Assembly: GCA_012517575.1 (NCBI GenBank) | Contig: JAAYUQ010000033.1 | Coordinates: 1-42,513 of the forward strand | Direction: 5' to 3' | Origin: Bacteroidales bacterium | Lineage (GTDB): Bacteria > Bacteroidota > Bacteroidia > Bacteroidales > Paludibacteraceae | Length of the DNA: 42,513 bases | Shown: piece by piece, positions 13,343-37,045 of the stretch | Layout of the letters: the number at the start of each line of letters is the position of its first letter | How positions within the stretch are numbered: the first letter of the stretch is position 1 | The notes under the pieces: model-generated | Told to the model about the DNA's origin: nothing | The model's input: only the letters and a program-made list of their open reading frames with translations | Database searches by the model: none | Position numbers and translations under genes: made by a program

Positions 13343-15610
13343 CTATTTGGTCATTGAATAGGGCAAGTCGCTTTTCTCTATTCCCCGCTTTTTATTCGGA
13401 ATATTACTCATTCTGAAAAGTAGTTTTACTCCTTTTTTCAACGAATCGATATTTAAATAATTGTGGGTGTAGCTTTTGCCGTTTATTTTCAAATTATCCA
13501 CATAAACATTTTCGGTATTATTGTTAGTTGACAGTATTTCAGTTGTTTTTCCATTTGATAAATGCAAAACAACCTTCGAGAAAAGCGGCGAACCTATAAC
13601 ATATTGTCCGCTACCAGGACAAACAGGATAAAAGCCAAGCGCTGAAAATACGTACCACGCCGAAGTTTGACCATTATCTTCGTCGCCACAATAACCGTCG
13701 GGCGTAGGAAGATATAATTTATCCATCACTTGCCTGACATGATATTGCGTTTTCCATGGTATACCTGCATAATTGTAAAGATAAATCATGTGCTGAATCG
13801 GCTGATTTCCGTGTGCATAATTTCCCATATTCATAATTTGCATTTCACGGATTTCGTGTATGGTAGAGCCGTAATAGCTATCATCGAAAACAGGTGGTAA
13901 AGCAAAGACCGTATCAAGCATTTGATTGAACATCTTCGTTCCACCCATCAAATTGATTAACCCTTGAGGGTCGTGAAAAACGCTCCAAGTGTAATGTAAA
14001 GCATTCCCTTCAGTAAAATCGCCGCCCCATTTAAATGGACTGAATGGTTCCGAAAAATATCCGTCATCTTTTCTTCCTTGCATTAAATTGTATTTCGAAC
14101 TGAAAAGATTGCGATAATTCCGGCTTCTTTGGGCATATATTTCTATTTCACTTTCGGGTTTGCCAAGTGCTTTCCCCAATTGATAAATGCACCAGTCATC
14201 GTAAGCATATTCGAGCGTGCGGGCTGCACTTTCGTTGATGCCGACATTGCAAGGCACATAACCCAGGCGGTTATAATATTCGTAACCTAAACGGCCTGTA
14301 GAAGAAACTTGCGGATGAACATGGTTGGCAGTATAGGTAATTCCTTCCCATAAAGCGTCGGTATCCTTCACCTTGATTCCTTGTAAAAATGCATCCGCAA
14401 GAACTGAGGCAGAATTATTTCCAACCATGCAGCCACGATGTCCCGGACTTGCCCATTCGGGGAAAAAGCCGCTTTCCTTGTAAGCATTGATTAAACCTTC
14501 CTGCATCATCGCATTCATTTCGGGATAAAGCAAATTGAGCAAAGGAAAAAGACAGCGGAAAGTATCCCAAAATCCTGTGTCAGTAAATAGGTAACCCGAT
14601 TCGGTTTTGCCGTTATACGGACTATAATGCACTACTCCGCCACTTTTATCATATTCAAAAAAACTGCGTGGAAAAAGCACAGAGCGATACAGACAAGAAT
14701 AGAAGGTACGCAATTTATCTATATCGTTGCTTTGAACTTCCACTCTACCAAGAATTTCGTTCCAACGTTTTTTACCGATGGTTTTTATTTCTTCAAACGA
14801 ATGATTTCCGAGTTCTTTTAAATTGATTTCTGCTTGTTCAAAACTGATAAATGAAGATGCTACCCGAGCATGTACCAATTCACCGCGTTTTGTAGAGAAA
14901 CCAATTATCGAACCTGCGTGGTCGGCTTTCCCTTCCAATTCATTTTCACTAAATTTTCCGTTGATAATTAATGTTTTATAACTAAATTTTTTATCGAAAA
15001 CAATAACAAAGTAATTTTTGAAATTTTCGGGCACTCCGCCTGAATTTTTTGTCGTGTAACCAATGATTTTATTCTCCTCCGGAATGATTTTTATAAATGA
15101 GCCGTTGTTAAAGGCATCCACTACTACATATGAACAATCTCTTTCAGGAAAAGTAAAACGAAACATGGCAGCGCGTTCTGTCGGGGTTATTTCGGTAGTA
15201 ACATCAAAATCGGCAAGATATACTTTGTAGTAAAAGGGTTTGGCTATCTCAGCCTTATGTGAAAACCAGGAAGCTCGTTCATTTTCGTCGAAAACGGGTT
15301 TACCCGTAATCGGCATAATAGAAAATTGTCCATAATCGTTTATCCAAGGACTGGGCTGGTGAGTTTGCTTGAAACCGCGAATTTTATCAGCATCGTAGGT
15401 ATAGGTCCAGCCATCGCCCATTATACCGGTTTGCGGTGTCCAGAAATTCATTCCCCATGGAAGCGCAACTGCAGGATAAGTATTTCCGGTGGATAAATAA
15501 TTTTTAGACTGAGTTCCAACCAGCGTACTGACGTAATCGACAGGTGATTGGGAGAACAAAAAATTGAGAACTAAAAATGAAAAATTTAGAACTAAAAAAA
15601 ATTGTTTCAT
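13343..15610 (-). CDS. GH92-family exo-alpha-mannosidase
   Basis: A calcium-dependent inverting alpha-mannosidase of 755 residues, expected to remove terminal alpha-1,2/1,3/1,4/1,6-mannose. The N-terminal beta-sandwich begins VDYVSTLVGTQS and includes FKQTHQPSPWINDYGQFSIMP. The (alpha/alpha)6 barrel contains EGNALHYTWSVFHD with Glu534, probably the general acid, and CGDEDNGQTSAWYVFSALGF with Asp643 and Asp645, the probable base pair; these positions are close to those of Bacteroides BT3990. Signal peptide 1-20 contains a duplicated LVLNFxF heptad. There is no T9SS tail: the protein ends IEKSDLPYSMTK, so it is likely periplasmic, unlike most neighbours. It starts 5 bp after the DUF5005-like stop. 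Confidence 0.92.
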   Translation of the reverse strand: MKQFFLVLNFSFLVLNFLFSQSPVDYVSTLVGTQSKNYLSTGNTYPAVALPWGMNFWTPQTGIMGDGWTYTYDADKIRGFKQTHQPSPWINDYGQFSIMPITGKPVFDENERASWFSHKAEIAKPFYYKVYLADFDVTTEITPTERAAMFRFTFPERDCSYVVVDAFNNGSFIKIIPEENKIIGYTTKNSGGVPENFKNYFVIVFDKKFSYKTLIINGKFSENELEGKADHAGSIIGFSTKRGELVHARVASSFISFEQAEINLKELGNHSFEEIKTIGKKRWNEILGRVEVQSNDIDKLRTFYSCLYRSVLFPRSFFEYDKSGGVVHYSPYNGKTESGYLFTDTGFWDTFRCLFPLLNLLYPEMNAMMQEGLINAYKESGFFPEWASPGHRGCMVGNNSASVLADAFLQGIKVKDTDALWEGITYTANHVHPQVSSTGRLGYEYYNRLGYVPCNVGINESAARTLEYAYDDWCIYQLGKALGKPESEIEIYAQRSRNYRNLFSSKYNLMQGRKDDGYFSEPFSPFKWGGDFTEGNALHYTWSVFHDPQGLINLMGGTKMFNQMLDTVFALPPVFDDSYYGSTIHEIREMQIMNMGNYAHGNQPIQHMIYLYNYAGIPWKTQYHVRQVMDKLYLPTPDGYCGDEDNGQTSAWYVFSALGFYPVCPGSGQYVIGSPLFSKVVLHLSNGKTTEILSTNNNTENVYVDNLKINGKSYTHNYLNIDSLKKGVKLLFRMSNIPNKKRGIEKSDLPYSMTK
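15554..15595 (-). repeat. 21-bp tandem duplication inside the GH92 signal peptide
   Basis: Two adjacent 21-bp units (15575-15595 and 15554-15574 on the minus strand) differ at four positions and encode LVLNFSF and LVLNFLF. The duplication lengthens the hydrophobic core of the signal peptide in frame. Confidence 0.7.
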
Positions 15611-15615
15611 GCCAG

Positions 15616-17946
15616 TTAGGATATTTTATTGAATTTAAAAGTTTGTATTCCTGTTTCTGTTTCTATTTTAAGTATATACATTCCAGCAGACAAAAAAGAA
15701 ACATCTATTGATTTGCCATCCGACAATTTGCCGTTAGCTATTTTTCTGCCCGAGATATCGAAAATCTGTACATTTTTAATCATTCCTACTCCGTTTTCAA
15801 TTGTTAACTTATTTTTGACGGGATTAGGATAAATATGAATATCTTGCTGCCCAATAACTTTTATTGCCGATTCACCCTCATAAAAAAAATCAACATATCG
15901 TCCGAAAAGTTGCCACTCTGCAATTTGTAAATCTGCAGAATTTTTGGTTGCCAATACATTCAAACGAAAATATTTGCAAGTTTTCGCAATTTTTGGTGTG
16001 TAGGAATTGGTCTGGGAACGCTCCGAAAATTCAGCATAATACCGTTCATCTAATATCGACCAATTTTCGGCATCGTCAGAGCCGAGCAGTTGCCAGTGAA
16101 GTGGGTCGCTATCGGGATTGTCGGGTGCAGAAGTGATTGTATATTGACGTAAAATTGTTTTTTGCGGTAAAACGCCGGTAAGGCTAACGCCATTGCTTGC
16201 CATTTGCACCTTAAAAACGGTTGTCGCATCATTATCCATAGCAGGATATTCTGCAGCAAGCCGATAGTCAATATCTACAGCAGGTACTGCTGGCAAATCG
16301 TTTGTAACCACATTTAATTTCCCTCGCCAATTTTTCACACGGAAAAAATAAGGCAGATAATAATTTGCCGATTGATTTGTTCCGTAACGGTTGAAGTCGC
16401 CATTATAGTTTTTACTCACCGAATACAGCAATTCGCCGTTTATTGAGAACTGTTGGTGCAAAGTAGGAATGTAACAAATAAAATTATTGGAAGTAATTTC
16501 AGCGGGTAGCTGACCTACTTTCCGGCGATTGGTAAAGGGTCCCACCGGTGAAGCAGCATCGTGAACAAAGGAATTCGGGCTAAAACACGGCTCCTGTTCA
16601 AAAGCAAAATATTTACCGCCATCTTTAAAAACAAAAATCGCATTGTTCAACAATTGGTGTCCAGCATTCCACCAGCCATCCGTATCACTTTCCGCCCAAT
16701 CATGTGTGGTTGTCCATTTTTTTGTTGCCGCATCATAAAATTCCCAAGTTCCCGTTAAATCTCCATCGATATTTCGAGCCACAAAAGTAGCGCTCACGCA
16801 AATGCCAAAATTTCGTTCGCCGTAGATATACACCACACCATCATCGTCGTCAAAAGCGATATTTGCAAATCCAACTTTTCCGGTATAACGGTCTTTTGCC
16901 ACTCGTAGCAGTTGCAAATTGGGCAACGAAAACACAGCCACATCCACTCCAACGCTTTGCATCCCCCATTGTCCGCCTCCGGCATTGACAGTATGTTCGA
17001 GCAAAATTTGTAATTCAGGCGTTCCGTTACGGTAATAAACGTGCCCGCCCATAGGCCAATACCATTCTTGACCATCAGGAAGCGGATTGCCATTTGCATC
17101 AGTACAGCGAATTGCAGGCTCTATTTGCCCAAGATTTTTACCAGCTGTCAATAGGCGAAATGCGCTAAAATCGAGACCATCTTGTGTCATCAAAGCATTG
17201 CGCAAAAATTGGGCAAGTTCAGTCAAGCGGTTTCGCTGCGAATTGACAACACCACAATCGTAATCGCCCCAAGTCCATACGCTTCTACCATCAGGTAAAA
17301 GCGTAGAAATACCAACATCGCCACCATTCCAGCCATAGTAACGCTCGAAGAAACCATCGAAATCCTTGTCGGCAAAATATTTCGTGGAAAAATTACCGGT
17401 AATGGATTGCCAATTATACGTTTTTGGAGCGGGAAAGCTATTTGTGTTATTGACCAACACATGAAACGGCTCACTGACAAAAAGTTGATTTATGGTATTC
17501 GACGGATCTTCGCCGGTTGCATATTTGAGTGAAAAATCGCCAGTATTTTCATTTGTAACAATTGCAAAAGAAAAATCAACTACAAATGTATTGCGACTGC
17601 TGAATGTTATTTTATCGAGTGCACGTCCGCCCCACCAATAATATCCGGCTGGCGTTTCGAGATTTCTGGAAAGATAATCGCTGTAAAATTGGCAATAAGC
17701 AAATTGTCCTTTCACCGTGTCGCCATTCGAAAACGCAATGGTAAAGTCACCACCTTTTCCCGCCACGCACCAACCGACCGGTAACAATAGGCCAAATAGA
17801 TTCCGCGTTTCGCCACGAATGCCAGTTGCCGCACTCCACTTCAACGACAAGTCGAACTCAGAAAAATTATCAACCGTATATGTTTGCGAATGAACACTCA
17901 AAAACAAGCACAAGGGGGAAAAAAGAATCAATAAAAATCTATTCAT
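15616..17946 (-). CDS. DUF5005-like secreted protein with discoidin domain and T9SS tail
   Basis: A 776-residue secreted protein. Signal peptide 1-20. Residues about 185-545 carry the features I associate with DUF5005/DUF4185 beta-propellers: FERYYGWNGGDVGISTLLPD at 200-219, RSVWTWGDYD, WYWPMGGHVYY, and repeated short beta-strand blocks. The family has no reaction known to me; its propeller-like layout recalls GH43/GH32 enzymes or sugar-binding proteins. Residues about 22-165 are an extra beta domain. Residues about 560-690 look like an F5/8 type C (discoidin, CBM32-like) domain (WQLLGSDDAENWSILDER, YFRLNVLATKNSADLQIAEW). Residues 702-776 are a type A T9SS tail (DIHIYPNPVKNKLTIENG). Its ATG overlaps the GH78 stop (ATGA) and its stop is 5 bp from GH92, so it is deep inside the operon. 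Confidence 0.65.
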   Translation of the reverse strand: MNRFLLILFSPLCLFLSVHSQTYTVDNFSEFDLSLKWSAATGIRGETRNLFGLLLPVGWCVAGKGGDFTIAFSNGDTVKGQFAYCQFYSDYLSRNLETPAGYYWWGGRALDKITFSSRNTFVVDFSFAIVTNENTGDFSLKYATGEDPSNTINQLFVSEPFHVLVNNTNSFPAPKTYNWQSITGNFSTKYFADKDFDGFFERYYGWNGGDVGISTLLPDGRSVWTWGDYDCGVVNSQRNRLTELAQFLRNALMTQDGLDFSAFRLLTAGKNLGQIEPAIRCTDANGNPLPDGQEWYWPMGGHVYYRNGTPELQILLEHTVNAGGGQWGMQSVGVDVAVFSLPNLQLLRVAKDRYTGKVGFANIAFDDDDGVVYIYGERNFGICVSATFVARNIDGDLTGTWEFYDAATKKWTTTHDWAESDTDGWWNAGHQLLNNAIFVFKDGGKYFAFEQEPCFSPNSFVHDAASPVGPFTNRRKVGQLPAEITSNNFICYIPTLHQQFSINGELLYSVSKNYNGDFNRYGTNQSANYYLPYFFRVKNWRGKLNVVTNDLPAVPAVDIDYRLAAEYPAMDNDATTVFKVQMASNGVSLTGVLPQKTILRQYTITSAPDNPDSDPLHWQLLGSDDAENWSILDERYYAEFSERSQTNSYTPKIAKTCKYFRLNVLATKNSADLQIAEWQLFGRYVDFFYEGESAIKVIGQQDIHIYPNPVKNKLTIENGVGMIKNVQIFDISGRKIANGKLSDGKSIDVSFLSAGMYILKIETETGIQTFKFNKIS

Positions 17947-20900
17947 CTTTTTGTGAATTTTACAGATTGTATTCCGTCGTCAGTTTTTATTTTCAAAAAA
18001 TATACGCCGATTGGCAACTTTGAAATTTCTACATACTTACCTTCAGCCAATTGGCAATTCATTATTTCTTTTCCAGATAAATTTATAATTTCCACACTTT
18101 TAATCGACAATTCGGTATTGTCGACAATCAACCTGTTGTTTGCAGGGTTGGGATAAACATTCAGTTTATAGTTTTTTTTTACAGTTTTAACTCCTGACGC
18201 GTTACTGCTTTTATTATCAAAAACATATGATCCTGACTCGAGTTCCAATACAAAACGTTTTGTTTCGGTAGTAAAATTAATAACACCTTCCACTTTTTCA
18301 GCAGCTACTCCATTTTGATATACCTTTATTGTATCGTTGTATCTTGGCAAATAAAGTGTTGCAGTTGTATTTGCAGGAACAGTGAGTACATAGCGGTAGT
18401 TTCCGTCAGCTAAGCGTTCCCATTTGATTTTAATTTTTCCATAGTACGAACCAAAAGAAGCATCAACCATAGTGATTCTTTCATTTTCGGGCACATCTCG
18501 CAAATCGGGTGTAGGTTGGAGAAGGAAATGCTTAAAGCCCGGATTTTTTTCATCTGCTTCTATACCGGCCATATATCGGAACTTCCACTCAGAAACTGCA
18601 CCATAAGAATAATGATTGAAAGAATTCATGGACGGATCACCAAAACCGCTGGCAATGGTGTATGAATTCCAACGTTCCCAAATGGTAGTTGCTCCTTGAT
18701 CAACACTGTAAAGCCACGAAGGATTATTACGCTGCAACAAGAGATTATAAGCCACATCCGAAGCTCCAAACTTGCTCAAAGTTTGATTTAAAATACCGGT
18801 GCCGACAAATCCGGTACTTAATTTGTTCCCGTTGTTCCGAATTTTTTCAACCAAATGATTGACAGCATTCTGTGTTTTTTCGGCATTCGGGAATAAATCA
18901 TTCTGCAATGCAAGTAAATATGCAGTCTGTGTATCCACAGAAAGGAATCCGTTACGCGAATTAACGTATCGCGATTGAAATTCTGATTTGATATTGTTGT
19001 AAAGCGTTTGATATTTGGCGGCTTTTTGGGCATAAAAATCATTAGCCGATTGGCTCAAAGCCGCAGAAATTTTCGTCATAAGCTGGGCAACATAAGCATA
19101 ATAACATACGCTGATAAAACGAGGATTTGTTTCTTCATAAGCCAACCAGTCGCCATATTGTGTATTACCACCATTGTAAAGATAGCCGTCAAATTGCTGA
19201 GTTGCCATCCAATCCATAAATTTTTCCATAGAAGCGTAATTGCTGTTCAAAACTTCTTTGTTTCCATACATTAAATACATATTCCACGGAACGATAATAC
19301 CAGCTTCTGCCCAAGCCGTACGGCCTGAACCTACGCCCCAATTATATGGTACTACCGAAGGATAAGTACCATCGGGTTGTTGGCTGTCCAGCACATCTTT
19401 TGCCCATTTATTGAAAAATGATACAACATCAGCATTATAAGCAGCAGCGCGTGAAAAAATTTGCGTATCGCCCATCCACCCTAAACGCTCATCACGTTGA
19501 GGACAGTCGGTAGGAACACTCAAAAAATTGCTTCTCTGACCCCATATTATATTGCTATACAATCTATTAACCATTTCATTGCTTGTGGTAAAAGATGAAT
19601 TTTCTTCATTTGCCGTTCCTACCACTTCACCATTAACATATTCAAAGTCGGTATTTTCCGTAGCAGTAATTTCACAATAACGAAATCCGAAAAAAGTCAT
19701 GGAAGGATTGAAAATTTCACCCATGGCATCTCCTTTCAGAATGTAATTCAATGTAGCTTTGGCCGAGCGAAGATTTTTCAAATAAAGCGTTCCTTTGGCG
19801 TTATCGTTTCCACGTCCACTTTCCCCTGAATCGTTCAACATTTCGGCAAATCGAGCACGGACTTTTGTTCCACTTGATCCTTTTACCTTAAACTTAATCC
19901 AACCTGCAAAATTTTGACCGAAGTCTATTATTGCCGTTTCCCCTTTTTGCAAAGAGAAAGGCTGAGATGCTGCAAACATACGCACTATGTTTATTTGTCC
20001 GTAAGTTGAGGCATCAGGATTAATACCATTATAAATGACAATGGATTTCGGTTTTTGTTCCAAAGATGTTCTCACCCGAACAGGCTGTCCGATAAATGCC
20101 AACATATCACCTGTGAAATAGTTATTTACATCTGTTTCAAGCCAATCAGAATCGTCAAAATCACTGGTAGTCCAATTACTTTCTTTCCGAGCATCATAAT
20201 TTTCACCATCATAAATATCAGCCATTCGTATGGGAGAATTGGTTGTAGCTTTCCAATTGGAGGTGTTGGTTACAAATGTTTCAGTTGTTCCATCGGAATA
20301 TGTTACCAAAATTTTAGCAATAAAAGCAAGCGGATGCACTCCATATTCATTGTGAGCAATGCGTCCTGTGAACCAACCAGAAGAAACTTCCGCTCCTATG
20401 GCATTTTGTCCCGATTTGAGCAAATCTGTTATATCATAAGTTGAATAAAAAACGGTTTTGCGATAATCTGTCCATCCGGGTTTCAGTTCGTCATAAACGA
20501 TATTGCCATCGGATTGCGGTGTGCCAACACGTCTGCCATTGATAAACATATCGTAAATTCCCAAAGCTGAAGCATAAATGCGGGCTGACTTTATGGGTTT
20601 TGCGATGACAAATTCATTACGAAACATGGGAATTCCCTGTACTTCGTTTTGCAACACCCGAAAATCGGCATTTCCGTTTGCCATTAAGTCCATTTTGGTG
20701 TTTCCGTTCACCATGATGGTATTGGCTTCCTCAAAATCGTTTGAACCATTTTCAAAATTTTCGGTAAAAGTTTTTGGTATGCCGTTTTCGGAGTATTTAT
20801 ACTCAATATTGTCAACATAAGCATGTTCGTGTGTTCCATTATCGCCGGTATAAACGCGAAAGCCGATGAACCCATTCTGCAAAGCCGGACTGTTGTATGT

Positions 20901-21638
20901 GTCCACAAGTACGCCATCAAGATAGGTATAAATCACATTATCAACCACATCTATTTTTAATCTTCTTTCATGATTAAGGATTTGTTCCGTTGTAAATTGC
21001 GCTGGCAACGGAATATCTGCTATAGCAGTTGCATTCCCATCTATAAAAATGTGTCGGCGCAAAATGGGATGACTTACCTGATAAGTATTTATTGCCCACA
21101 TATACATATTATTAGCATCTTTGGCACCAAAAATTACTCCTGCATTCTGATCAATTACCGTTATATCGCAGGCGAGCGTAAAGCTCACAGGTTCGGTACT
21201 TTCAGATTTTTCTTTTATTTTCAGCCAATGGGCTCCACTCCAACCCGATTGCATTAGTCCCGTTTCAAAAAAAGCTTCTTCATATGACGAAATTTTGGTG
21301 CCGTTTTTATCCCACACATCAACTTTCCAAAAATAGCGGGTGGAAGGTGAAAGAGCAGAACCAGCATATTTTATTCCAACAGAAATATTGGAATTAATTT
21401 TTCCCGAATTCCAAACTACTTTAGTTCGATCGCCATCGAACAATGCAATTTGATAAGCTGTTTGGCATTGCCCAGTTTCATCCGATTCCATTTCCCAACT
21501 GAATTGCGGATTTGGTGCATCAATTCCAATAGGATTTTTCAAATATTCCACCCGAAGATTTTGTATTGTTGTGGTTGAATACACATGAAAGCTGAGAAAA
21601 AATAAAATTCCGCACAAAAGCAACCACTTAATTTTCAT
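17943..21638 (-). CDS. GH78-family alpha-L-rhamnosidase with inserted LamG-like domain, T9SS tail
   Basis: A 1231-residue secreted inverting alpha-L-rhamnosidase. Signal peptide 1-21. The N-terminal Fn3-like domain (about 24-140) ends SGWSGAHWLKI. It is followed by an unusual ~195-residue LamG/DUF1080-like insertion (141-337; AGVIFGAKDANNMYMW, IYTYLDGVLVD, YVDNIEYKYS) before the usual rhamnosidase N domain resumes at FRNEFVIAKPIKSARIYASA. The catalytic barrel has DCPQRDERLGWMGDTQ at 711-726 with general acid Glu717, and TTIWERWNSY with the probable base Glu988, matching known GH78 enzymes. A C-terminal beta domain (about 1030-1140) and a type A T9SS tail (KLNVYPNPANNRLIVDN) follow. The start is 29 bp after the CotH stop; the end overlaps the DUF5005-like start. 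Confidence 0.92.
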   Translation of the reverse strand: MKIKWLLLCGILFFLSFHVYSTTTIQNLRVEYLKNPIGIDAPNPQFSWEMESDETGQCQTAYQIALFDGDRTKVVWNSGKINSNISVGIKYAGSALSPSTRYFWKVDVWDKNGTKISSYEEAFFETGLMQSGWSGAHWLKIKEKSESTEPVSFTLACDITVIDQNAGVIFGAKDANNMYMWAINTYQVSHPILRRHIFIDGNATAIADIPLPAQFTTEQILNHERRLKIDVVDNVIYTYLDGVLVDTYNSPALQNGFIGFRVYTGDNGTHEHAYVDNIEYKYSENGIPKTFTENFENGSNDFEEANTIMVNGNTKMDLMANGNADFRVLQNEVQGIPMFRNEFVIAKPIKSARIYASALGIYDMFINGRRVGTPQSDGNIVYDELKPGWTDYRKTVFYSTYDITDLLKSGQNAIGAEVSSGWFTGRIAHNEYGVHPLAFIAKILVTYSDGTTETFVTNTSNWKATTNSPIRMADIYDGENYDARKESNWTTSDFDDSDWLETDVNNYFTGDMLAFIGQPVRVRTSLEQKPKSIVIYNGINPDASTYGQINIVRMFAASQPFSLQKGETAIIDFGQNFAGWIKFKVKGSSGTKVRARFAEMLNDSGESGRGNDNAKGTLYLKNLRSAKATLNYILKGDAMGEIFNPSMTFFGFRYCEITATENTDFEYVNGEVVGTANEENSSFTTSNEMVNRLYSNIIWGQRSNFLSVPTDCPQRDERLGWMGDTQIFSRAAAYNADVVSFFNKWAKDVLDSQQPDGTYPSVVPYNWGVGSGRTAWAEAGIIVPWNMYLMYGNKEVLNSNYASMEKFMDWMATQQFDGYLYNGGNTQYGDWLAYEETNPRFISVCYYAYVAQLMTKISAALSQSANDFYAQKAAKYQTLYNNIKSEFQSRYVNSRNGFLSVDTQTAYLLALQNDLFPNAEKTQNAVNHLVEKIRNNGNKLSTGFVGTGILNQTLSKFGASDVAYNLLLQRNNPSWLYSVDQGATTIWERWNSYTIASGFGDPSMNSFNHYSYGAVSEWKFRYMAGIEADEKNPGFKHFLLQPTPDLRDVPENERITMVDASFGSYYGKIKIKWERLADGNYRYVLTVPANTTATLYLPRYNDTIKVYQNGVAAEKVEGVINFTTETKRFVLELESGSYVFDNKSSNASGVKTVKKNYKLNVYPNPANNRLIVDNTELSIKSVEIINLSGKEIMNCQLAEGKYVEISKLPIGVYFLKIKTDDGIQSVKFTKR

Positions 21639-21667: not shown

Positions 21668-24016
21668 TCAATAAATTATTTTCAATGTTTTTCCGTGTAA
21701 ACGAACAAGATATATTCCGCGAGCAGGCAAAGCAATCTTCAATGTGCTGCTTACTGATTTTTGTTGTTTGAAAAGTCTCCCATCTATACTATAAATCTGA
21801 ACATTTTCACCTGACAACAAACCATTGATAATAAGATTTCCGTTGCTTACATAATAGATAAAATTTGTCTCCTTGTTTGGTGAATCTACAAAATTTGTTT
21901 CATTGCTTTGTTCTTCGGATGTAATATAAATTCCAACGTCGATTAACTGCCCACCTGCAGTTTGTGTACATTTTGCCGCCAATATATTCCAACCTTCGTG
22001 TAATAAATTTTTGTCGAATTCAAAATACTGGTAAGCTGTAATATAGCCTTCACGGTGCAAAGCAAGTTCGTTATTGAGATAAATTTCGCAATCTTCATCG
22101 TGCCAAATGTAGAAATAGGTTTTATCGAGCGCTTCCAAATCTTCACTGTTCACATAAAATTTCTTTCGAATAAATATCTGATTGGAAGTCCAAGTGGTAT
22201 TTTGCAGGTTTTGTTCTGTTCCAAAAGGTGCTTTCCCCGATTGCCAACCACTGTCATCAAAAGTATTTGTGTACCAATTTGAAGCGGGCGAGTCGAAAGT
22301 GTATTGCCAAGTTTGCGCCGTATCGTTTTTCAACGAAATCGGCAAAATAGCTTTCCGTTGCTGAGCAATTTCGTCGAACCATGTAAAACGGTCTACTATG
22401 TATTGTTTTACAAAATCGATATATTCGTTATACGTATTAAAAAGTGCATCTTCAAACCAAACTTTACGGTTCAAAGAATTCCATCTTGCAAAATTTAATG
22501 CTTGAGATTGCTGCAAAAGGGCTGAATTTTCGTCCATGTATTCGAGCAAATGTTGCTGCAAATTATCGCTTTTAACCTCTTTCCATAAACGTCTTAATAC
22601 TGTTTGAGCCGTATCTGTTTGCATAATTTTTCTGAACCATTCCAGCGCAACACCGAAATTTGTTTTCAAGGTTTCGCTGTAGCGTGGCACTCTTTCATTG
22701 GTCAAAAAGGCCTGGTCATAATCCCAAACAGGGCCAAAATAAAGTCTATCATCTCCCCGTTTTTTATAACAGGGAATACACCAGTACGAATCGCAATTGC
22801 CGCTCAGCTCGGAATGAAGATAATACTTTACTGCGCTTTCAATATCGATGTACTTTTCAAGTGCCTCATTTGTGTTGGTAAACAACGAATTTTCCAATAC
22901 ACCGACATGATTTTCTATCCATTTTTTTTGTTCAGGCAAAATTTCGTCGCTGTCAGGGGATTTAATCGTAAATGGGACTCCACGCTGCGTAGTAAAATGC
23001 ACCGGCTCCTGGTCGGCATAAGCGTCAATTTCGAGTTGATAACCGCCAGAAATATTGTAAGGATCGACATCGGCAGTTGTCATTTCATCAATATTCACTC
23101 TATTATTGTCCACATCAACATTGTCGCTTGCCATGAATGTTCCATAATAAAACCCATCCAAAACAACATCAACCATAACACATGAAGGAGTAAATTCAAA
23201 ACCGAGCGCTTTGCTCATTTCAAAAGCTAATCCATTGCGTAGCAAAGTTTTATCAACTGCAAGAGCTATCAATGTCCAGTTTTTTGCTTTGGCAGGCATT
23301 CCCAGAAAATGTTGCTTTGCATTGAATTTAATTTTAAAAGATTTCTTTTCCATGAAATCCCAAGAAGAATTTCCTCTTCCACGCACTTGTGCATCAAAAA
23401 TCTCAACCAAATCGGCATTTGAAACCGCCACTTTTGCCGGAACATAAGTTTCCTTGTTTACAAAATCAAATTGCCCAGCCGTCTCCAGATATATGGTCGG
23501 CAAATTTGTAAGTTTTGGATAATTGATGGTTTGTAAATTCAGATCAGTATAAAATTCGAGCTCGGCAATGCTGCAACGATGGTCGGGATTCATACAACGC
23601 ACATAGCGAAAAGTTTGAGGGGTAGTAATATCGTAAGTAATATATTCGCCGGCATTAGGCGTTTGAGTTACAGTAAAAAGTGTGACGGGATTAGCAAAAT
23701 TAGGATTATCTGCTCCTTGAAACTGAGTACCGACAAATTGCTCATTCCGGTCGGGCATAGGATAAATGCGGATTTTTCGGATGGGAAAATTTTCTCCCAA
23801 ATCAAGTCCTACCCACCCACTAACATCATGAGCCATAAAACTGGTTGCTTCGTTCGTGTCGAAAGCATTGTAAGCGTGGCGAGTGTAATTATCGTCGGGA
23901 ACAGTCGACATAACAACGCCACGGAGTTTTTGATAGTCGGCTAAATTTTGCGCACACAAAAACGAAATAAATATACTGAAAATTAATAAGTTGAGTATGG
24001 ATAACGAGCGTTTCAT
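21668..24016 (-). CDS. CotH-like kinase family protein with discoidin and GH2-type domains
   Basis: A 782-residue secreted protein of the CotH family, atypical protein kinases first known from Bacillus spore coats; Bacteroidota members are mostly uncharacterised. Signal peptide 1-22 (FLCAQ). Residues 30-158 are an F5/8 type C domain (YNAFDTNEATSF, GWVGLDLGENFPIRKIRIY, SIAELEFY). The CotH kinase core has RGRGNSSWDFMEKKSFKIKF at 212-231, including the conserved RGxSS-type and Lys residues, and FGPVWDYDQAF at 427-437 with the metal-binding Asp pair. Residues 568-700 are a GH2-type beta-sandwich (FDDSGWQSGKAPFGT) also found in the DUF4965 protein nearby. The C-terminal ~75 residues (VQIYSIDGRLFKQQ, GIYLVRLHGKTLKIIY) resemble a T9SS tail without YPNP. 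Its ATG overlaps the GH43 stop (ATGA). Confidence 0.88.
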   Translation of the reverse strand: MKRSLSILNLLIFSIFISFLCAQNLADYQKLRGVVMSTVPDDNYTRHAYNAFDTNEATSFMAHDVSGWVGLDLGENFPIRKIRIYPMPDRNEQFVGTQFQGADNPNFANPVTLFTVTQTPNAGEYITYDITTPQTFRYVRCMNPDHRCSIAELEFYTDLNLQTINYPKLTNLPTIYLETAGQFDFVNKETYVPAKVAVSNADLVEIFDAQVRGRGNSSWDFMEKKSFKIKFNAKQHFLGMPAKAKNWTLIALAVDKTLLRNGLAFEMSKALGFEFTPSCVMVDVVLDGFYYGTFMASDNVDVDNNRVNIDEMTTADVDPYNISGGYQLEIDAYADQEPVHFTTQRGVPFTIKSPDSDEILPEQKKWIENHVGVLENSLFTNTNEALEKYIDIESAVKYYLHSELSGNCDSYWCIPCYKKRGDDRLYFGPVWDYDQAFLTNERVPRYSETLKTNFGVALEWFRKIMQTDTAQTVLRRLWKEVKSDNLQQHLLEYMDENSALLQQSQALNFARWNSLNRKVWFEDALFNTYNEYIDFVKQYIVDRFTWFDEIAQQRKAILPISLKNDTAQTWQYTFDSPASNWYTNTFDDSGWQSGKAPFGTEQNLQNTTWTSNQIFIRKKFYVNSEDLEALDKTYFYIWHDEDCEIYLNNELALHREGYITAYQYFEFDKNLLHEGWNILAAKCTQTAGGQLIDVGIYITSEEQSNETNFVDSPNKETNFIYYVSNGNLIINGLLSGENVQIYSIDGRLFKQQKSVSSTLKIALPARGIYLVRLHGKTLKIIY

Positions 24017-25170
24017 ATGATCAGTTTTAATGTCTCGGACTGGTTGTTTTTATATTGAATTGCCACCACATAACATCCCAATTTTTTCATCAGAAATGAA
24101 AATGGAGCATTGTTTTTGCAAGCTATGAGGCATCCATTTGTGTCGTATAAACTGACTGTGTTTATCTCGTATCCCGTGATAACTACTTGTCGGCTTTCAA
24201 CCGAAATTTTTGCTTTTTCAGCATTTTGTATAGTTTTAAATCCCATACCGACAGGCTTTATATAAGCGGGCTGATATTCTGTGCTAACAGTTAAAACATC
24301 TCTTCTGTTACCCGGCACAAATTCAACTGAGGTGGTGTACATTTCGCGGGGATTGACTTCAGTTTCGCTGTGATGAGCATGAAAAGCCATCCGCAATTGT
24401 CCGTCTTTGTCGGTAAAAAGGCAATGATGGCCGGTGCCGTAAAGTCCATCGGGTTTTTGCAGTATGGGATTGTTAGGATTTTTCACCCAACCACCGGAAA
24501 TATTGTCAGTATAAGCATAACCCACACCATATTTTTGACTTCGGTAATCGTTTGCCGAATAAGTTAAATAATACAAGCCATTATGCTTAATACAAAACGG
24601 GCTTTCGTTAACTTTTCCCATATCGGCTTCCCAACCTGAAGTATTCGCAGCAAAGCAAAGATGCAATGTGTTGGTTTTTATGGTTTTATAATCTTTTTCA
24701 AGTTCTGCCATCCAAATTGCATTTCCATCAGTAAAACGGACAAAGAAAAGATAAGGGGTTCCATCATCATCAATAAACAGAGAATTGTCAATACCTTTTT
24801 CTTCGAACATAGGTTGCTGAATGTCTTGTACAAATGGGCCCAGCGGCGAACTGGAAGTTGCCACACAGATATGTTCATCGGCGGAATAATACATGTAAAA
24901 CTGTCCGTTGATGAAATAGACTTCAGGCGCCCAAAACCAACGATCGGCATAAGAATTGTTTTTATGCAGGGCAAGATTAGACTGCTTTGTCCAAAATTTC
25001 AAATCGTCCGAAGTATAAACCACTATTCCATCAGCATCTGAAGTACCGTAAGCATAATATTTATTTTCATAACAGAGAATAAATGGGTCGGCAAGAGGTA
25101 ACTTTTGCTGACCTAATGCAAAATGCAAAACAAAAAAAACAAAATAAAGAGATAAAAATAAACGTTTCAT
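24013..25170 (-). CDS. GH43-family beta-propeller glycosidase, probable T9SS tail
   Basis: A 385-residue secreted enzyme, probably an arabinofuranosidase, arabinanase or xylosidase. Signal peptide 1-20. The three GH43 acids are visible: base Asp28 in LADPFI, Asp128 in GIDNSLFIDDDG, and acid Glu189 in KVNESPF. Other propeller landmarks include WAPEVYFINGQFYMYYS and GTGHHCLFTDKDG. The last ~60 residues (VSLYDTNGCLIACKNNAPFS, CYVVAIQYKNNQSETLKLII) look like a T9SS-type beta domain, though without YPNP. Exact substrate cannot be fixed from sequence alone; neighbours suggest an arabinose-containing side chain. The stop overlaps the CotH start, so the two are translationally coupled. It lies 94 bp after the GH31 gene. 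Confidence 0.88.
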   Translation of the reverse strand: MKRLFLSLYFVFFVLHFALGQQKLPLADPFILCYENKYYAYGTSDADGIVVYTSDDLKFWTKQSNLALHKNNSYADRWFWAPEVYFINGQFYMYYSADEHICVATSSSPLGPFVQDIQQPMFEEKGIDNSLFIDDDGTPYLFFVRFTDGNAIWMAELEKDYKTIKTNTLHLCFAANTSGWEADMGKVNESPFCIKHNGLYYLTYSANDYRSQKYGVGYAYTDNISGGWVKNPNNPILQKPDGLYGTGHHCLFTDKDGQLRMAFHAHHSETEVNPREMYTTSVEFVPGNRRDVLTVSTEYQPAYIKPVGMGFKTIQNAEKAKISVESRQVVITGYEINTVSLYDTNGCLIACKNNAPFSFLMKKLGCYVVAIQYKNNQSETLKLII

Positions 25171-25264: not shown

Positions 25265-27541
25265 TTAATTTTCTATTACTTTAACCGATAATTTTGAGTC
25301 GCAGGGTTGAAGAGGTAAATCAATTGTAAGCGTTTTAGTTGCAGAATTGTACTGAAATTTTCCTTTTTTCCCATCAATAAATTTAACTGCTAAAGGTTTC
25401 GGTCTTGCTAAAAGTTCGAGACGATAAACACGTTTTGCAGGCATACCTGCAAATGTTCCTTGTCGTGGATAAATGGTATAAATTCCCTCAACATCTTTTT
25501 TCGATTGTGTAATTTTAGTAAAAGTACAGGCTCCTGTCTCATAATTATCATTATCATTTTCATCTTCATAAAGCAAAAATTCACCTGATTTACCAGGAGC
25601 AAACTGTAAAATAAGTGTATCGGGACGTTGCTTCAAATGACCGATTTTTGGATATTTAGGAATAATTGCCCCCTCGCGGTAATAGTATGGAATTTGACTT
25701 CGGCTAAAACTCCGGTTAACTACCCGATTTCCTTCGAGTAACTCTCCTGTAGAAACTTCGTACCATTTCCCTTTAGGCAACCAAACGGTTTGAGTTACCA
25801 AATTGGTACCTTTGTCCGACTTAACTATTGGCGACACTAGAATATCATTTCCAAACATGTATTGACCTTCGTAACGATAAGCTTCTTCGAGTTCTGGGTA
25901 ATCGTAATACATGGGACGACAAAGTGAAATTCCCGTATCATAAGCGTAGCGGGAGTAAGTATAAATGTAAGGGATCAGCGAATAGCGAAGTTCCAAAGCC
26001 TGACGCATTAGAGAAAAATTTGGATAGCGCCAAATACGTCGTTCGATATGGCGGGCATTGGTAGCGTGTGTTCGCATGATGGGCGAAAAAACACCGTATT
26101 GAATCCAACGCAAATACAGTTCAGGATCATTGTCGCCGCTTTGCTGATGACCTCCTATATCATGGCTCCAATAGCCATAACCAACATTGGAAGCAGTGGC
26201 CGTAAAATAAGGCTGAAAAGCAAGCGAAGGAAAAGTTGCATACGTATCACCGGAAAAACCTATCTGATAGCGATGATTACCTAACCCTCCCCAGCGATGA
26301 AAAATGATAGGACGTCCTTTACGTTGTAATTTTTTGTCTGTAAAAAACACATGGTTCAACCAAAACGTATTTCCCAAATCAGGCTCGTTGCGGGCTATCA
26401 TCCATTGTTGCCAATCAATCCACCAAAAGTCCACTCCCAAATTTTCGAGAGGTCGAAGTATGTATTTGAAAAACTCTTGATAAAATTGTTTGTTTTCGAT
26501 GTTCCACGGAATGGTTTGTCCATCAGTAACTTTCAAACTGGCTGCTAATTTCTCGTAATTATCCTCTTTCGGAAAAATGCCCTCAGCAGGATGGAGATTA
26601 AGCGTTGTTTTCAAGTTTTGTTGGTGAAGCCATGCAATAAAGCCGGCAGGGTCAGGAAATAAAGCTTTATTCCACGACCAGCCAGTCCATTCCGTATTGT
26701 CGGTACTGCCAGTTTTACCATTCCTGTGCCAGTCCATGTCTATAACCATTACATCGATAGGAATATCGTTTGCCTTAATTTCATTCACTATGTCGATAAA
26801 ATCCTGTTGCGAATAGCGCTGGTATTTTGAATACCAGTATCCAAACGCATAAAGTGGTGGCATGGGAATCTTTCCTGCAATGCGGGTAAAATCGTATAAG
26901 GCTTTTTTATAATCATGCCCGTAACCGAGAAAATACCAGTCGAGTGAGTGGGGATCTTTTCGTTGTGCTACCCAATTAATTCCTTCGCTTCCGTCGAACA
27001 TCAGGCTTAAACTGCCGTCATTTCGCCTTTGTTTTTCATCTATCACTGCCCAGCCCGAACGGGAAAGTAAACCATCTTCGAGCCAACTGCGCACATCACC
27101 TTCAGCATTATCCAAAGTTCTTGTCGTGCCTTTCAGATTAAACGGATCTTTTTTACCTGGATACCAAATCACATCTTTACCATTCAACTTCAAAGCAATT
27201 TGCAAATTTGGATGGACTGAGTCGTTATTGACAGGATAAGAACCAATTTTATATCGCAACTCAAGTTTATCTGTAGTAATAATCAAATAACCATTTTCGT
27301 TGTGTGAAGTGAAAAAAGGAACAGGCAAATCGCGATTGACAACCACAAATGATGCTCTATCTTCAAACAAATTTAGAGCGCTCCATTCTATGCGGACAAG
27401 TTCAGGCGTCAGCACAGTAAAACGCATATTGCCAGATGTAACAATGGCAGCAGGATTTGCTTTCGGGTTATTTTCCGCATAAAGCGGTTGATAAAAAATA
27501 AACGCAAGCATATAAATCAAAAGAAATAAATATTTTTTCAT
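25265..27541 (-). CDS. GH31-family alpha-glycosidase
   Basis: A 758-residue GH31 retaining enzyme that acts on an alpha-linked sugar (glucose, xylose, galactose or GalNAc are all known in the family). Signal peptide 1-22. An N-terminal beta-sandwich (about 30-215) precedes the TIM barrel starting PPLYAFGYWYSKYQRYSQQD. The likely nucleophile is Asp376 in DFWWIDWQQW and the acid/base Asp432 in GFSGDTYATF; NVGYGYWSHDIGGH follows. Gln379, three residues after the nucleophile, stands where Glu or Asn is typical (WIDMNE, KTDFGE), so the substrate may differ from standard alpha-glucosidases. A DUF5110-like C-terminal beta domain is present (FLLYEDENDNDNYETG). There is no T9SS tail, suggesting a periplasmic enzyme. 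Gaps of 87 bp and 94 bp separate it from GH51 and GH43. Confidence 0.9.
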   Translation of the reverse strand: MKKYLFLLIYMLAFIFYQPLYAENNPKANPAAIVTSGNMRFTVLTPELVRIEWSALNLFEDRASFVVVNRDLPVPFFTSHNENGYLIITTDKLELRYKIGSYPVNNDSVHPNLQIALKLNGKDVIWYPGKKDPFNLKGTTRTLDNAEGDVRSWLEDGLLSRSGWAVIDEKQRRNDGSLSLMFDGSEGINWVAQRKDPHSLDWYFLGYGHDYKKALYDFTRIAGKIPMPPLYAFGYWYSKYQRYSQQDFIDIVNEIKANDIPIDVMVIDMDWHRNGKTGSTDNTEWTGWSWNKALFPDPAGFIAWLHQQNLKTTLNLHPAEGIFPKEDNYEKLAASLKVTDGQTIPWNIENKQFYQEFFKYILRPLENLGVDFWWIDWQQWMIARNEPDLGNTFWLNHVFFTDKKLQRKGRPIIFHRWGGLGNHRYQIGFSGDTYATFPSLAFQPYFTATASNVGYGYWSHDIGGHQQSGDNDPELYLRWIQYGVFSPIMRTHATNARHIERRIWRYPNFSLMRQALELRYSLIPYIYTYSRYAYDTGISLCRPMYYDYPELEEAYRYEGQYMFGNDILVSPIVKSDKGTNLVTQTVWLPKGKWYEVSTGELLEGNRVVNRSFSRSQIPYYYREGAIIPKYPKIGHLKQRPDTLILQFAPGKSGEFLLYEDENDNDNYETGACTFTKITQSKKDVEGIYTIYPRQGTFAGMPAKRVYRLELLARPKPLAVKFIDGKKGKFQYNSATKTLTIDLPLQPCDSKLSVKVIEN

Positions 27542-27628: not shown

Positions 27629-30283
27629 TTACAATACCACAATTTTCTGAGTTTTTTGGAAACCTGAATCTGTAACTTTTATTATGTAAGCACCTGACGA
27701 CAAAGCTAAGAAATCATTGTTTTTTGTAAGCAATTTGTTGTATAAATTTTCCCCTAATAACGAGAAAATATTCACTTTTGCGTTTAAAAATGGGTTATTG
27801 CAATTAATATTCACTCCTCCCTTTGAACCCGAAACAGTAATTCTCTCTTCATTCGCACTATTTACACTTGTCCCATTTTTCATAATGCGAATAATGGTGT
27901 ATGAATAGGCTGGAAAATTATAAGCAAAAGAAGCGTTTTCGAGAGTGATTTTTGAGAATTGGGGAATAATTTTTTCAGGTTGCTCAGGGGTATTATCACC
28001 ACTCAAAGCAGCCGTTAATTGAATAACATCAGCCATCCCTTTTGGATTGAAATTCTGTATATTAAAGCTTTGATTGACATTTGTCGGTTGTGTGTTGACA
28101 ATGTGAAGCACCAGCGTTTGAGCATTTTCGTCAGTAGTGGCCGTAACATCAAGCGTTAAACCTCTTGATGTTTGTTTTACGCGTTTCGGCAAATGATTTT
28201 GGGCTGCCATTTGTTGTGCATAATATGTTGGCATTCCCCACACTTGCGAAGGAGTAAAAAATATCTGACCTTGATCCCATCCGTTGTCATTTTGCAAATA
28301 AGGCTGAAGTGCATTCGCAGCGCAAGAAGTCAATACAAAATCTCCCATGCGACGCACGGTATTCAACACAGTAGCATGAGCCAGAGCACGCTGAAAATTA
28401 TGAAGATTTCCATTTTCTTCAAAAATAGCGCATTTCATATTGGTATTGACATCCCATTCTTTAAATTTTTCTTGCATTTTTCGCAATTCCGTTTCTATTG
28501 TTTTCCCCGATGTCAGTTCATCTGTCCATGGATGGTAGTCCCAAAAATCGGCTTTACCGTTAAATGCATTAAAAACACGTTGTGAATTGGTGGATTCAGG
28601 ACGCCACCATGCAGAATTAATAAATTTTAAATTTGGGTCTTTTGCTTTCATCGCATTGAATAAATCGAGAAAACGTTCAATATAATGTGTGTATTCTGCA
28701 GTAACATCACCATTAAAAAGAACTTCTTCATTTCCTATTTCTATGTACTTAACCCTGTAAGGCTCTGGGTGTCCATTTTCGGCGCGTTTTGCTCCCCATA
28801 CTGTTGATGTCTCGCCATTCAAATATTCAATCATATCAGCGGCATCCTGAGCTGTTTCTTCGATATTAATAGCAAAAGCAGGTTCAAAACCAGCAGCTTC
28901 GCAAAATTTCAAAAAATCTTCAATTCCAAAACCATTTGTCGAAAACGGATACCAATGTCCACGGTAAGGTGGTCGTAAATCGGGATCGCCTATCATCTTT
29001 TTGAACCTATATTCTGGAGCATTCACCATTGTTCCTCCGTAACGGAGAAAAGTAAGTCCTTGTCCAACCATAGCATTTCCAATATCGGCACGACAAGGCA
29101 AATTGTGAAACCGTTCTTCTCCAACTCCTTCGAGTACTACCTGATCAATCCACAGTAAACCTTCGTTTTCTATCCAAAAGGCAAAACGCGCATTGCTGTC
29201 AGTGGCGGTTGAAGTGAGTTGAAACGGATATTTTGCCCATGAAGAACCGATATTTTTCAATTTCTGTGAAGCATAAATTGACTGACAATCAGCACTCAGC
29301 AGAGCGACAGTAACATCTCCTGAAAAATTTGCACAACGAAGATACATGCGTCCCTGAAACTGTTGTCCCGTTTTTACAGCAATACCCCAACGATTCAGTC
29401 CTCCATTTATTAAACCTGCTCTGCCACTACCATCTGCAAAAACAATTTTTTGTGCTGCCGTACCGTTAAATGGGTCTTGGTGTTCGCGAATAAAAGTTGC
29501 ATTTGGATTTTCGCGAAGAATATCCCACTGACCGCTTCGAGTAACAACACCCGAAAAAGGTAAATCAGTCCAGTCTCCATTTGTTTTTATTTTTAAATTC
29601 CGGAACGAAACATTAGAACGCCATGTACGTAAACCAATTTTACCAGAAAGAAAAGGAACATTGTTATCAACATAATCAACATTGGGAGCAATAGCATCAT
29701 TCACATAAATTCTGATTCGGCTGCCTGACAATTCAACCCGGAGTCGCGTCCACTCATCAGAGTTGAAATTAACGGCAGTATTGCCAAGCGGCTGCCAATT
29801 GTGCTGATGTTTACCGAGAATTATTTCATGTGTAATGGCATTCAACCCTATTTCGTAACCATCCCAATTGTCGGCACCAATTCCCGGATTATTTACTCGC
29901 AGGATGAGTGCAGCACTTTCGCAGACATCATTAAATTTCATTTCAACCTCTATGCTACCATCAGAAAAGGATGAATGATGCAACAATTTCGACCCATCAT
30001 CTGCGGTTACTGACAACGCAGATGATGAGACAGACCAATTGCCTCCGTAATCGTCAAATTCATCAAAACTCATGCTTTGAGAATCTTCCTCGAAACTTTC
30101 TCCAAAAATTTTCTGGTCATACAATCCGCCATAAATTTCATGATTGACATCTTCGATACAAGACCCATAAAGATAAGGAGTAATCGTATTTTCGACTGTA
30201 GCGACATCAATAGTAACAGGATTCTGAGCAAAAATAATGTTCAGCGACACAATAAAAAGGTATAAAATAGAGAGTTTTTTCAT
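27629..30283 (-). CDS. GH51-family alpha-L-arabinofuranosidase with inserted LamG-like and CBM4/9-like domains
   Basis: An 884-residue secreted retaining alpha-L-arabinofuranosidase. Signal peptide 1-19. The family start ITPYLYGSCIEDVNHEIYGGLYD is at 34-56. It is then interrupted by a LamG/DUF1080-like insertion (about 70-236; ALILRVNN, RIRIYVNDAIAPNVD) and a CBM4/9-like segment (about 240-386; FWIENEGLLWIDQVVLE). The TIM barrel resumes near 398 (GLTFLRYGGTMVNAPEYRF). EIGNEE at 515-520 carries acid/base Glu519, and AIFEENGN at 619-626 carries the nucleophile (Glu622 or Glu623). The C-terminal ~75 residues (AKVNIFSLLGENLYNK, GAYIIKVTDSGFQKTQKIVVL) form a T9SS-type tail without YPNP. It lies 72 bp after the DUF4965 gene. 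Confidence 0.9.
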   Translation of the reverse strand: MKKLSILYLFIVSLNIIFAQNPVTIDVATVENTITPYLYGSCIEDVNHEIYGGLYDQKIFGESFEEDSQSMSFDEFDDYGGNWSVSSSALSVTADDGSKLLHHSSFSDGSIEVEMKFNDVCESAALILRVNNPGIGADNWDGYEIGLNAITHEIILGKHQHNWQPLGNTAVNFNSDEWTRLRVELSGSRIRIYVNDAIAPNVDYVDNNVPFLSGKIGLRTWRSNVSFRNLKIKTNGDWTDLPFSGVVTRSGQWDILRENPNATFIREHQDPFNGTAAQKIVFADGSGRAGLINGGLNRWGIAVKTGQQFQGRMYLRCANFSGDVTVALLSADCQSIYASQKLKNIGSSWAKYPFQLTSTATDSNARFAFWIENEGLLWIDQVVLEGVGEERFHNLPCRADIGNAMVGQGLTFLRYGGTMVNAPEYRFKKMIGDPDLRPPYRGHWYPFSTNGFGIEDFLKFCEAAGFEPAFAINIEETAQDAADMIEYLNGETSTVWGAKRAENGHPEPYRVKYIEIGNEEVLFNGDVTAEYTHYIERFLDLFNAMKAKDPNLKFINSAWWRPESTNSQRVFNAFNGKADFWDYHPWTDELTSGKTIETELRKMQEKFKEWDVNTNMKCAIFEENGNLHNFQRALAHATVLNTVRRMGDFVLTSCAANALQPYLQNDNGWDQGQIFFTPSQVWGMPTYYAQQMAAQNHLPKRVKQTSRGLTLDVTATTDENAQTLVLHIVNTQPTNVNQSFNIQNFNPKGMADVIQLTAALSGDNTPEQPEKIIPQFSKITLENASFAYNFPAYSYTIIRIMKNGTSVNSANEERITVSGSKGGVNINCNNPFLNAKVNIFSLLGENLYNKLLTKNNDFLALSSGAYIIKVTDSGFQKTQKIVVL

Positions 30284-36887: not shown

Positions 36888-37045
36888 GATTATAAAAATT
36901 TGATCTAAAAAATAGAACAATAATTTTTTTACAACGAGGTTATACTCAATTTTAAAATTTCTGATACTTTGAAATACGTCGAATTATTTGAATTTTAATA
37001 GAAATGATTTGAATGAACAAACTTTATGATTCTTTTTTCATGGTT
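36888..37045 (-). other. AT-rich leader upstream of the GH32-SGNH gene
   Basis: This 158-bp gap between the GH115 stop and the GH32-SGNH start is strongly AT-rich. No full TAnnTTTG match, hairpin terminator or RNA gene is seen on the minus strand. It is long enough to contain a promoter for the downstream operon. Confidence 0.3.

What the first reader, a model, noticed from the sequence alone, without database searches (positions are those of the whole stretch)
21668..24016. CotH-like kinase translationally coupled to glycoside hydrolases
Seen: RGRGNSSW and PVWDYD kinase motifs, a discoidin domain, a GH2-type beta-sandwich and a T9SS-like tail in one protein whose start overlaps the GH43 stop and which is 29 bp from GH78. 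Known: CotH proteins are atypical kinases in spore coats. Inferred: a secreted kinase co-made with glycan-cleaving enzymes could phosphorylate released sugars, the enzymes or surface proteins, or may have been repurposed for a non-kinase role. ATP supply outside the cell is an open problem, which makes the arrangement worth testing.
Basis: partly seen in the sequence, partly recalled or inferred. Interest (0 to 1): 0.65.

Follow-up and report, generated by a model that had tools for sequence, protein, structure and literature searches.

The report
Sugar-binding CotH kinase-fold secreted protein
A Bacteroidales bacterium makes, in one run of a dozen genes that mostly code for sugar-cleaving enzymes, a secreted protein that joins a sugar-binding module to a CotH-type kinase fold whose key acidic residues are intact; similar pairings are known from cellulosomes, so it is an interesting variant of a known puzzle rather than a new kind of system.

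Summary
Window 21668-24016 encodes 782 aa: signal peptide, CBM62-type module, CotH kinase domain, jelly-roll domain, T9SS tail. It overlaps the GH43 stop by 4 bp and lies 29 bp from GH78, in a co-directional run with 12 other genes, mostly glycan-enzyme families. The AlphaFold2 model matches CotH 5jd9 (Z 30) and CBM62 2yfu (Z 21). The aspartates matching B. subtilis CotH D228 and D251 (my mapping) are present in 54 of 54 aligned rows. The catalytic-loop Asn of 5jd9 is not kept: Ser in 51 of 54, Cys here and in two full-length orthologues. Activity is plausible but unproven. Linkage to enzyme genes recurs (nearest orthologue L054, 59% identical; L083; L103) but is a minority pattern: 14 of 80 relatives within 10 kb by a local search, not L053, the other full-length orthologue. 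CotH proteins among secreted glycan-degrading enzymes are known from cellulosomes, role unsolved. Less expected: 75 of the 80 nearest relatives carry a CBM62 or ricin-type module, 0 of 59 other CotH proteins do (both samples selected, see report). Verdict: new variant of a known kind; substrate and ATP source open.

The parts
21668..24016 (-). CotH gene, 782 aa
23951..24016 (-). signal peptide, residues 1-22, cleavage before Gln23 (read by eye, no predictor run)
   Evidence: sequence; helix 3-18 in the model
23537..23944 (-). CBM62-type carbohydrate-binding module, residues 25-160
22352..23506 (-). CotH kinase-fold domain, residues 171-555
22790..22792 (-). codon of D409, aligned with the Asp of 5jd9 that I take to be D228 of B. 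subtilis CotH
   Evidence: the B. subtilis numbering is inferred from the equal spacing of 23
22721..22723 (-). codon of D432, aligned with the Asp of 5jd9 that I take to be D251 of B. subtilis CotH
   Evidence: numbering inferred as above
22763..22798 (-). catalytic loop, residues 407-418, NCDSYWCIPCYK; Cys408, Cys413, Cys416 shared by the three full-length orthologues; no Asn where 5jd9 has one
21893..22345 (-). jelly-roll domain like that of the GtaA-like protein, residues 558-708
21671..21868 (-). T9SS type A sorting tail, about residues 717-782 (borderline score)
24013..24016 (-). ATGA overlap of GH43 stop and CotH start
24013..25170 (-). GH43 enzyme, upstream partner
17943..21638 (-). 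GH78 alpha-L-rhamnosidase family with T9SS tail, downstream partner, 29 bp away
15616..17946 (-). DUF5005 protein with T9SS tail (function unknown)
13343..15610 (-). GH92
11026..13302 (-). GxGYxYP putative glycoside hydrolase; homologue next to CotH in L054
8676..10898 (-). GH76; homologue in the L054 run
5920..8679 (-). GH127-like
25265..27541 (-). GH31
27629..30283 (-). alpha-L-arabinofuranosidase (GH51-like domains)
30356..32896 (-). GtaA-like six-hairpin protein (DUF4964/DUF5127); homologue in the L054 run
32934..36920 (-). GH32 with extra domains
37046..41227 (-). GH115

Best explanation
It is a Sec-exported, T9SS-sorted, glycan-docked member of the CotH family, encoded in the same gene run as a set of glycosidases. 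Shown: the domain order, the CotH and CBM62 matches in sequence and modelled fold, the intact Asp pair, the gene layout, and T9SS homologues in the genome. Inferred: the CBM62 module and perhaps the jelly-roll domain hold it on glycan or on the glycan-covered cell surface beside the glycosidases, where the kinase domain transfers phosphate from ATP (leaked, released by lysing cells, or met during export) onto co-secreted proteins, tuning or fixing the surface enzyme assembly, as has been suggested for cellulosomal CotH proteins.
For: CotH profile E 1.5e-37; model Z 30.0 to CotH 5jd9 over 330 residues; D409, D432, R214, K224, D255, N261, E403, K418, W431, D434 identical in 54 of 54 rows, window included; 46 of 58 kinase-domain positions that are at least 90% conserved in the other 51 rows are kept in all three full-length orthologues; the kinase domain is the best conserved domain against L054 (66% against 57% CBM, 59% jelly-roll, 40% tail), so it is under constraint. 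CBM62. T9SS sortase and SprA homologues and 57 sorting-tail matches in the genome, 10 of them on this contig. Gaps of -4 to 127 bp across the run. L054 keeps CotH on one strand with GtaA-like, GxGYxYP and GH76 homologues at 58-65% identity. Suggested roles of cellulosomal CotH: PMC12484212 (passages).
Against: The catalytic-loop Asn seen in 5jd9 is Ser in 51 of 54 rows and Cys here; no ATP source outside the cell is known; no substrate was identified; the T9SS tail is borderline, and only 9 of 54 A3 rows match the Pfam sorting tail; the full-length orthologue L053 showed no homologue of the window's enzymes within its 22 kb, and its four Pfam-scanned neighbours are a GDSL hydrolase, an outer-membrane barrel, YceG and an unknown; most of the 80 relatives showed no enzyme homologue nearby.
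Confidence: 0.48

Rival explanations
1. Pseudokinase or scaffold: the CotH fold is kept as a structural or ligand-binding unit (lectin-like adhesin or enzyme holder) without phosphotransfer. (The rivals overlap, so the odds need not add to one.)
For: Catalytic-loop Asn replaced by Ser/Cys across the branch; 75 of 80 nearest relatives carry CBM62 or ricin-type modules; no extracellular ATP supply known.
Against: Both Asp and several other charged positions are invariant in 54 of 54 rows, more than a mere scaffold would seem to need.
Confidence: 0.32
2. Passenger: the gene sits in the enzyme island by chance rearrangement and has no functional tie to the glycosidases.
For: Linkage is a minority pattern: homologues of the query enzymes adjacent in 4 of 80 loci, within 3 kb in 11, within 10 kb in 14; no glycoside-hydrolase family hit among ten scanned neighbours of seven same-family relatives, one of which is a BNR-repeat protein.
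Against: A 4-bp overlap and 29-bp gap in mid-run; the closest orthologue keeps GtaA-like, GxGYxYP and GH76 partners; other CotH-enzyme runs in L083 and L103.
Confidence: 0.15
3. Glycan kinase: it phosphorylates sugars of the bound or released glycan, in the manner of the eukaryotic kin Fam20B (kinship and function recalled, from no call).
For: CBM62 or ricin-type modules in 75 of 80 nearest relatives and a gene run with glycosidases.
Against: No residue or genomic evidence for a sugar acceptor; no phosphosugar-uptake or phosphatase family among the Pfam hits of the 15 window ORFs scanned.
Confidence: 0.1

Closest known systems
Bacillus CotH spore-coat kinase (5jd9/5jda from B. cereus; B. subtilis CotH)
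   Same: Same fold by model (Z 30.0, 330 residues, 3.0 A) and an Asp pair with equal spacing.
   Different: 16% identity; lacks the loop Asn; carries CBM62, jelly-roll and T9SS tail.
Cellulosomal CotH proteins (C. thermocellum CseP/Cthe_0044, Cthe_0239; anaerobic fungi)
   Same: CotH domain exported together with glycan-degrading enzymes; role described as unclear (PMC12484212, PMC6083626, PMC8665504; passages read).
   Different: Those carry a dockerin; here CBM62 and a T9SS tail, linked to the enzymes by gene order, with no dockerin hit.
CBM62 of C. thermocellum Xyl5A (2yb7/2yfu)
   Same: N-terminal module, 36% identity over 133 residues, Z 21.1.
   Different: Attached to a CotH domain; two Arg of 2yb7 are Met and Gln here; whether they touch ligand was not checked.

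Membership tests
CotH family (PF08757) | profile match above curated cut-off | tested here: met
   130.3 bits against 23.8
CotH family (PF08757) | CotH fold | tested here: met
   Z 30.0 to 5jd9, model residues 171-555, on a predicted model
CotH family (PF08757) | Asp equivalent to B. subtilis D228 and D251 (mutants D228Q and D251A inactive, PMC7821199 passages) | tested here: met
   D409 and D432, 54 of 54 rows; B. subtilis numbering inferred from the 5jd9 alignment and spacing
Catalytically typical CotH kinase | catalytic-loop Asn as in 5jd9 (metal role recalled from the HRDxxxxN motif, from no call) | tested here: not met
   aligned, with a one-residue gap, to Ser in 51 of 54 rows and Cys in 3 of 54; Ile414 at equal spacing is no Asn either
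Catalytically typical CotH kinase | protein kinase activity | not testable with these tools
   needs protein and ATP assay
CBM62 | sequence and fold | tested here: met
   E 4e-19; Z 21.1
CBM62 | galactose-type ligand residues | not tested
   ligand contacts not looked up; two Arg of 2yb7 are changed
T9SS cargo | C-terminal sorting domain | tested here: inconclusive
   28.8 bits, over cut-off, in the genome scan; 22.4 against 23 as a single protein; no Pfam hit
T9SS cargo | secretion machinery in the genome | tested here: met
   sortase 1232.9 bits, SprA 2841.5 bits
Cellulosomal CotH | dockerin | tested here: not met
   no dockerin among the Pfam hits of the protein up to E 0.01
Polysaccharide utilization locus | SusC/SusD pair | tested here: inconclusive
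   none among the 15 window ORFs scanned, but the contig ends on the upstream side and not all ORFs were scanned

The most novel reading that the evidence does not exclude
Bacteroidales hold a group of lectin-tethered extracellular kinases (CotH plus CBM62 or ricin-type modules) that phosphorylate glycans or co-secreted glycosidases at the cell surface, with a modified catalytic loop (Ser or Cys for Asn; three Cys around the catalytic Asp in the window's branch) suited to an unusual donor, metal or redox setting.
Probability: 0.12. Interest if true: 0.8.

Novelty: new variant of a known kind. Interest (0 to 1): 0.42.

Why it matters
If active, it would put protein or glycan phosphorylation into the secreted glycan-degrading apparatus of Bacteroidales and would give a genetically linked set of candidate substrates (the cluster enzymes and their glycan) for the unsolved question of why CotH proteins travel with secreted carbohydrate enzymes. 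The CBM or lectin fusion in the group suggests where it acts even if the chemistry is unknown.

Tried and rejected
General conserved linkage of this CotH group with enzyme genes: rejected. By local phmmer with 18 queries (12 window proteins, DUF5005 and the GtaA-like protein included, plus six proteins taken from L054, L066 and L103, which biases the count upwards), homologues were adjacent in 4 of 80 loci, within 3 kb in 11 (three of these only through DUF5005), within 10 kb in 14; near against far genes Fisher p 0.14, adjacent against far p 0.043. Families not among the 18 queries are missed, and many loci are cut short by contig ends. A Pfam tally of 73 adjacent genes showed TPR families (4 members), dockerin (4), CotH (3), radical SAM (3), and 2 each of GH43, GH30 and sulfatase; only 25 of 134 families are printed, so single members are hidden. 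The 73 come from 52 of the 53 loci with an operon-like neighbour: I left out L061, whose neighbour is another CotH, and at L103 I took the next gene instead of the second half of its split CotH.

With the window's enzymes as queries (phmmer E 1e-5), 20 stretches around CotH genes of the genome itself and its relatives showed no enzyme homologue; the two non-CotH hits were to a ricin-type part of L040's own CotH and to a sorting tail in L050.

Chance motifs: rejected by profile, fold and conservation. Ordinary discoidin domain: replaced by CBM62. Lipoprotein: no lipobox by eye (Cys21 follows Leu). The CotH structure paper is not held; the paper on fungal cellulosome CotH kinases was seen only as a citation. 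Literature: searches gave listings only (open-licence library); I opened passages of five relevant papers and did not open others that mention CotH once or twice. PMC3413522 holds both CotH and CBM62, but in the passages seen CBM62 is in a different protein.

Full report
Observation. The ORF is exactly where stated but on the minus strand. It encodes 782 aa. Its start overlaps the GH43 stop as ATGA, and 29 bp separate its stop from the GH78 start. It lies within a co-directional run from 41227 down to 5920: GH115, GH32, GtaA-like, GH51-like, GH31, GH43, CotH, GH78, DUF5005, GH92, GxGYxYP, GH76, GH127-like, with gaps of -4 to 127 bp. The host is of the order Bacteroidales: G293, listed as 'same order' as the window's genome, carries a CotH gene identical to that of L053, whose record is titled Bacteroidales bacterium.

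Domains. Pfam gives CotH at 211-541 (E 1.5e-37). Residues 25-156 match CBM62 of C. thermocellum Xyl5A by sequence (E 4e-19) and by fold (Z 21.1, 1.8 A). An AlphaFold2 model from 54 sequences has mean pLDDT 82.5, above 85 over most of the kinase domain, below 50 at 555-611. Residues 171-555 match CotH 5jd9 with Z 30.0, 3.0 A over 330 residues. The 558-708 region resembles a domain of the GtaA-like protein in the same window; its Foldseek matches to GH2 enzymes are weak. The T9SS tail is just under cut-off alone and above it in the genome scan. The genome has T9SS sortase and SprA homologues. Among the 54 A3 rows only 9 match the Pfam sorting tail at E 0.001.

Active site. The profile alignment with 5jd9 sets D409 and D432 against two Asp that are 23 residues apart, the same distance as D228 and D251 of B. 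subtilis CotH; D228Q and D251A are described as inactive (PMC7821199, passages). The B. subtilis numbering is my inference. Alignment A3 holds the window protein and 53 of the 80 loci (27 loci, among them fragments, split or very long proteins, were left out). D409, D432, R214, K224, D255, N261, E403, K418, W431 and D434 are identical in 54 of 54 rows. The Asn five residues after the first Asp in 5jd9 aligns, with a one-residue gap, with Ser413 in 51 of 54 and with Cys in the window protein, L053 and L054; Ile414, at equal spacing, is no Asn either. Both an Asn type and a Ser type occur in Bacteroidota CotH; a rough pattern count over 59 CotH ORFs gave 28 Asn, 18 Ser, 13 other. The role of this Asn is recalled from kinases in general. 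The three full-length orthologues also share Cys408 and Cys416 beside the catalytic Asp; L118 and L129 have Cys408 and Cys416 with Ser413. Of 58 kinase-domain positions conserved at 90% or more in the other 51 rows, 46 are kept in all three and three are changed in all three: N287D, S413C, I514S.

Relatives. The CotH Pfam family is common: 154 of 247 Bacteroidales genomes (E 1e-10, completeness 90 or more) and 60 of 148 Bacteroidota genomes. The full-length architecture looks rare: among 393 genomes of the order only one besides the window's own had a near full-length match, the L053 genome. L054 is a third member. On a kinase-domain tree of 91 rows the window and L054 (SH-aLRT 98), then L053 (99), form one branch.

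Linkage. In L054 (59% identity) CotH lies between a sulfatase gene and GxGYxYP followed by GH76, with gaps under 20 bp, and with a GtaA-like gene upstream on the same strand (one gap of 178 bp); shared genes are 58-65% identical. L053 shows no such run. L083 has CotH, an unknown, a melibiase-type gene and a GH78 in one run. L103, whose CotH is split into two ORFs, lies among alginate-lyase, GH28, GH95 and GH2 genes. Across 80 loci the pattern is a minority: 4 adjacent, 11 within 3 kb, 14 within 10 kb. Linked rows are somewhat clustered on the tree (8 changes against a shuffled mean of 11.5, 0 of 500 as low), but near-copies inflate this. Ten scanned neighbours of the same-family relatives L034-L040 gave no glycoside-hydrolase family; one at L036 is a BNR-repeat protein with sorting tail, and one at L040 a hybrid two-component regulator. 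A more distant CotH pair, L051, has a glucuronyl-esterase-type gene nearby.

Lectin fusion. With the 2yb7 sequence as query, 56 of the 80 loci carry a CBM62-type module; 19 carry a ricin-type module and 75 carry either. The 80 were ranked by similarity to a query that contains CBM62, which favours that module; of the nine query rows I know only L040 to carry the ricin-type module. None of 59 CotH ORFs from two family-profile samples has either. Those samples are the best-scoring loci, not random ones, with about 1.5 kb of flank. So this points to one branch, not to the family.

Known context. CotH domains travel with secreted carbohydrate enzymes in bacterial and fungal cellulosomes; their role is described as unclear, possibly structural or regulatory, or speculated to be in cell-wall binding (PMC12484212, PMC6083626, PMC8665504; passages). 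That is the same open question as here. No paper on a Bacteroidales CBM62-CotH protein appeared in the listings (open-licence library only; most listed papers were not opened).

Verdict. A real, well-delimited CotH-family protein with a signal peptide and sugar-binding module in an enzyme gene run; plausible but unproven kinase; a new variant of a known kind.

Noticed in passing
L033:9069-11042 (G000 contig C8): The genome's other CotH of this group (CBM62 plus CotH) has an in-frame TAA between the two domains: a decayed gene or an assembly error.
   Followed up: partly
L050, L051, L052: A recurring pair of CotH genes (about 530 and 1040 aa) with a gene of 161-173 aa beside them; the shorter CotH lacks the full WD.D motif in these three loci while the longer one keeps it, suggesting a kinase/pseudokinase pair. 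L048 has the same layout but its shorter CotH was not checked.
   Followed up: partly
L063, L068, L086: A DUF5005-like gene lies divergently next to a long CotH gene in three related loci (Pfam checked for L063 only; the others by phmmer); DUF5005 is also in the window run.
   Followed up: no
genes adjacent to CotH in the loci: Four of 73 adjacent genes match the Pfam dockerin family; which loci they are in was not looked up.
   Followed up: no
L125: A contig labelled Williamsia (Actinomycetota) carries a Bacteroidota-like CotH, possibly a binning or labelling error.
   Followed up: no
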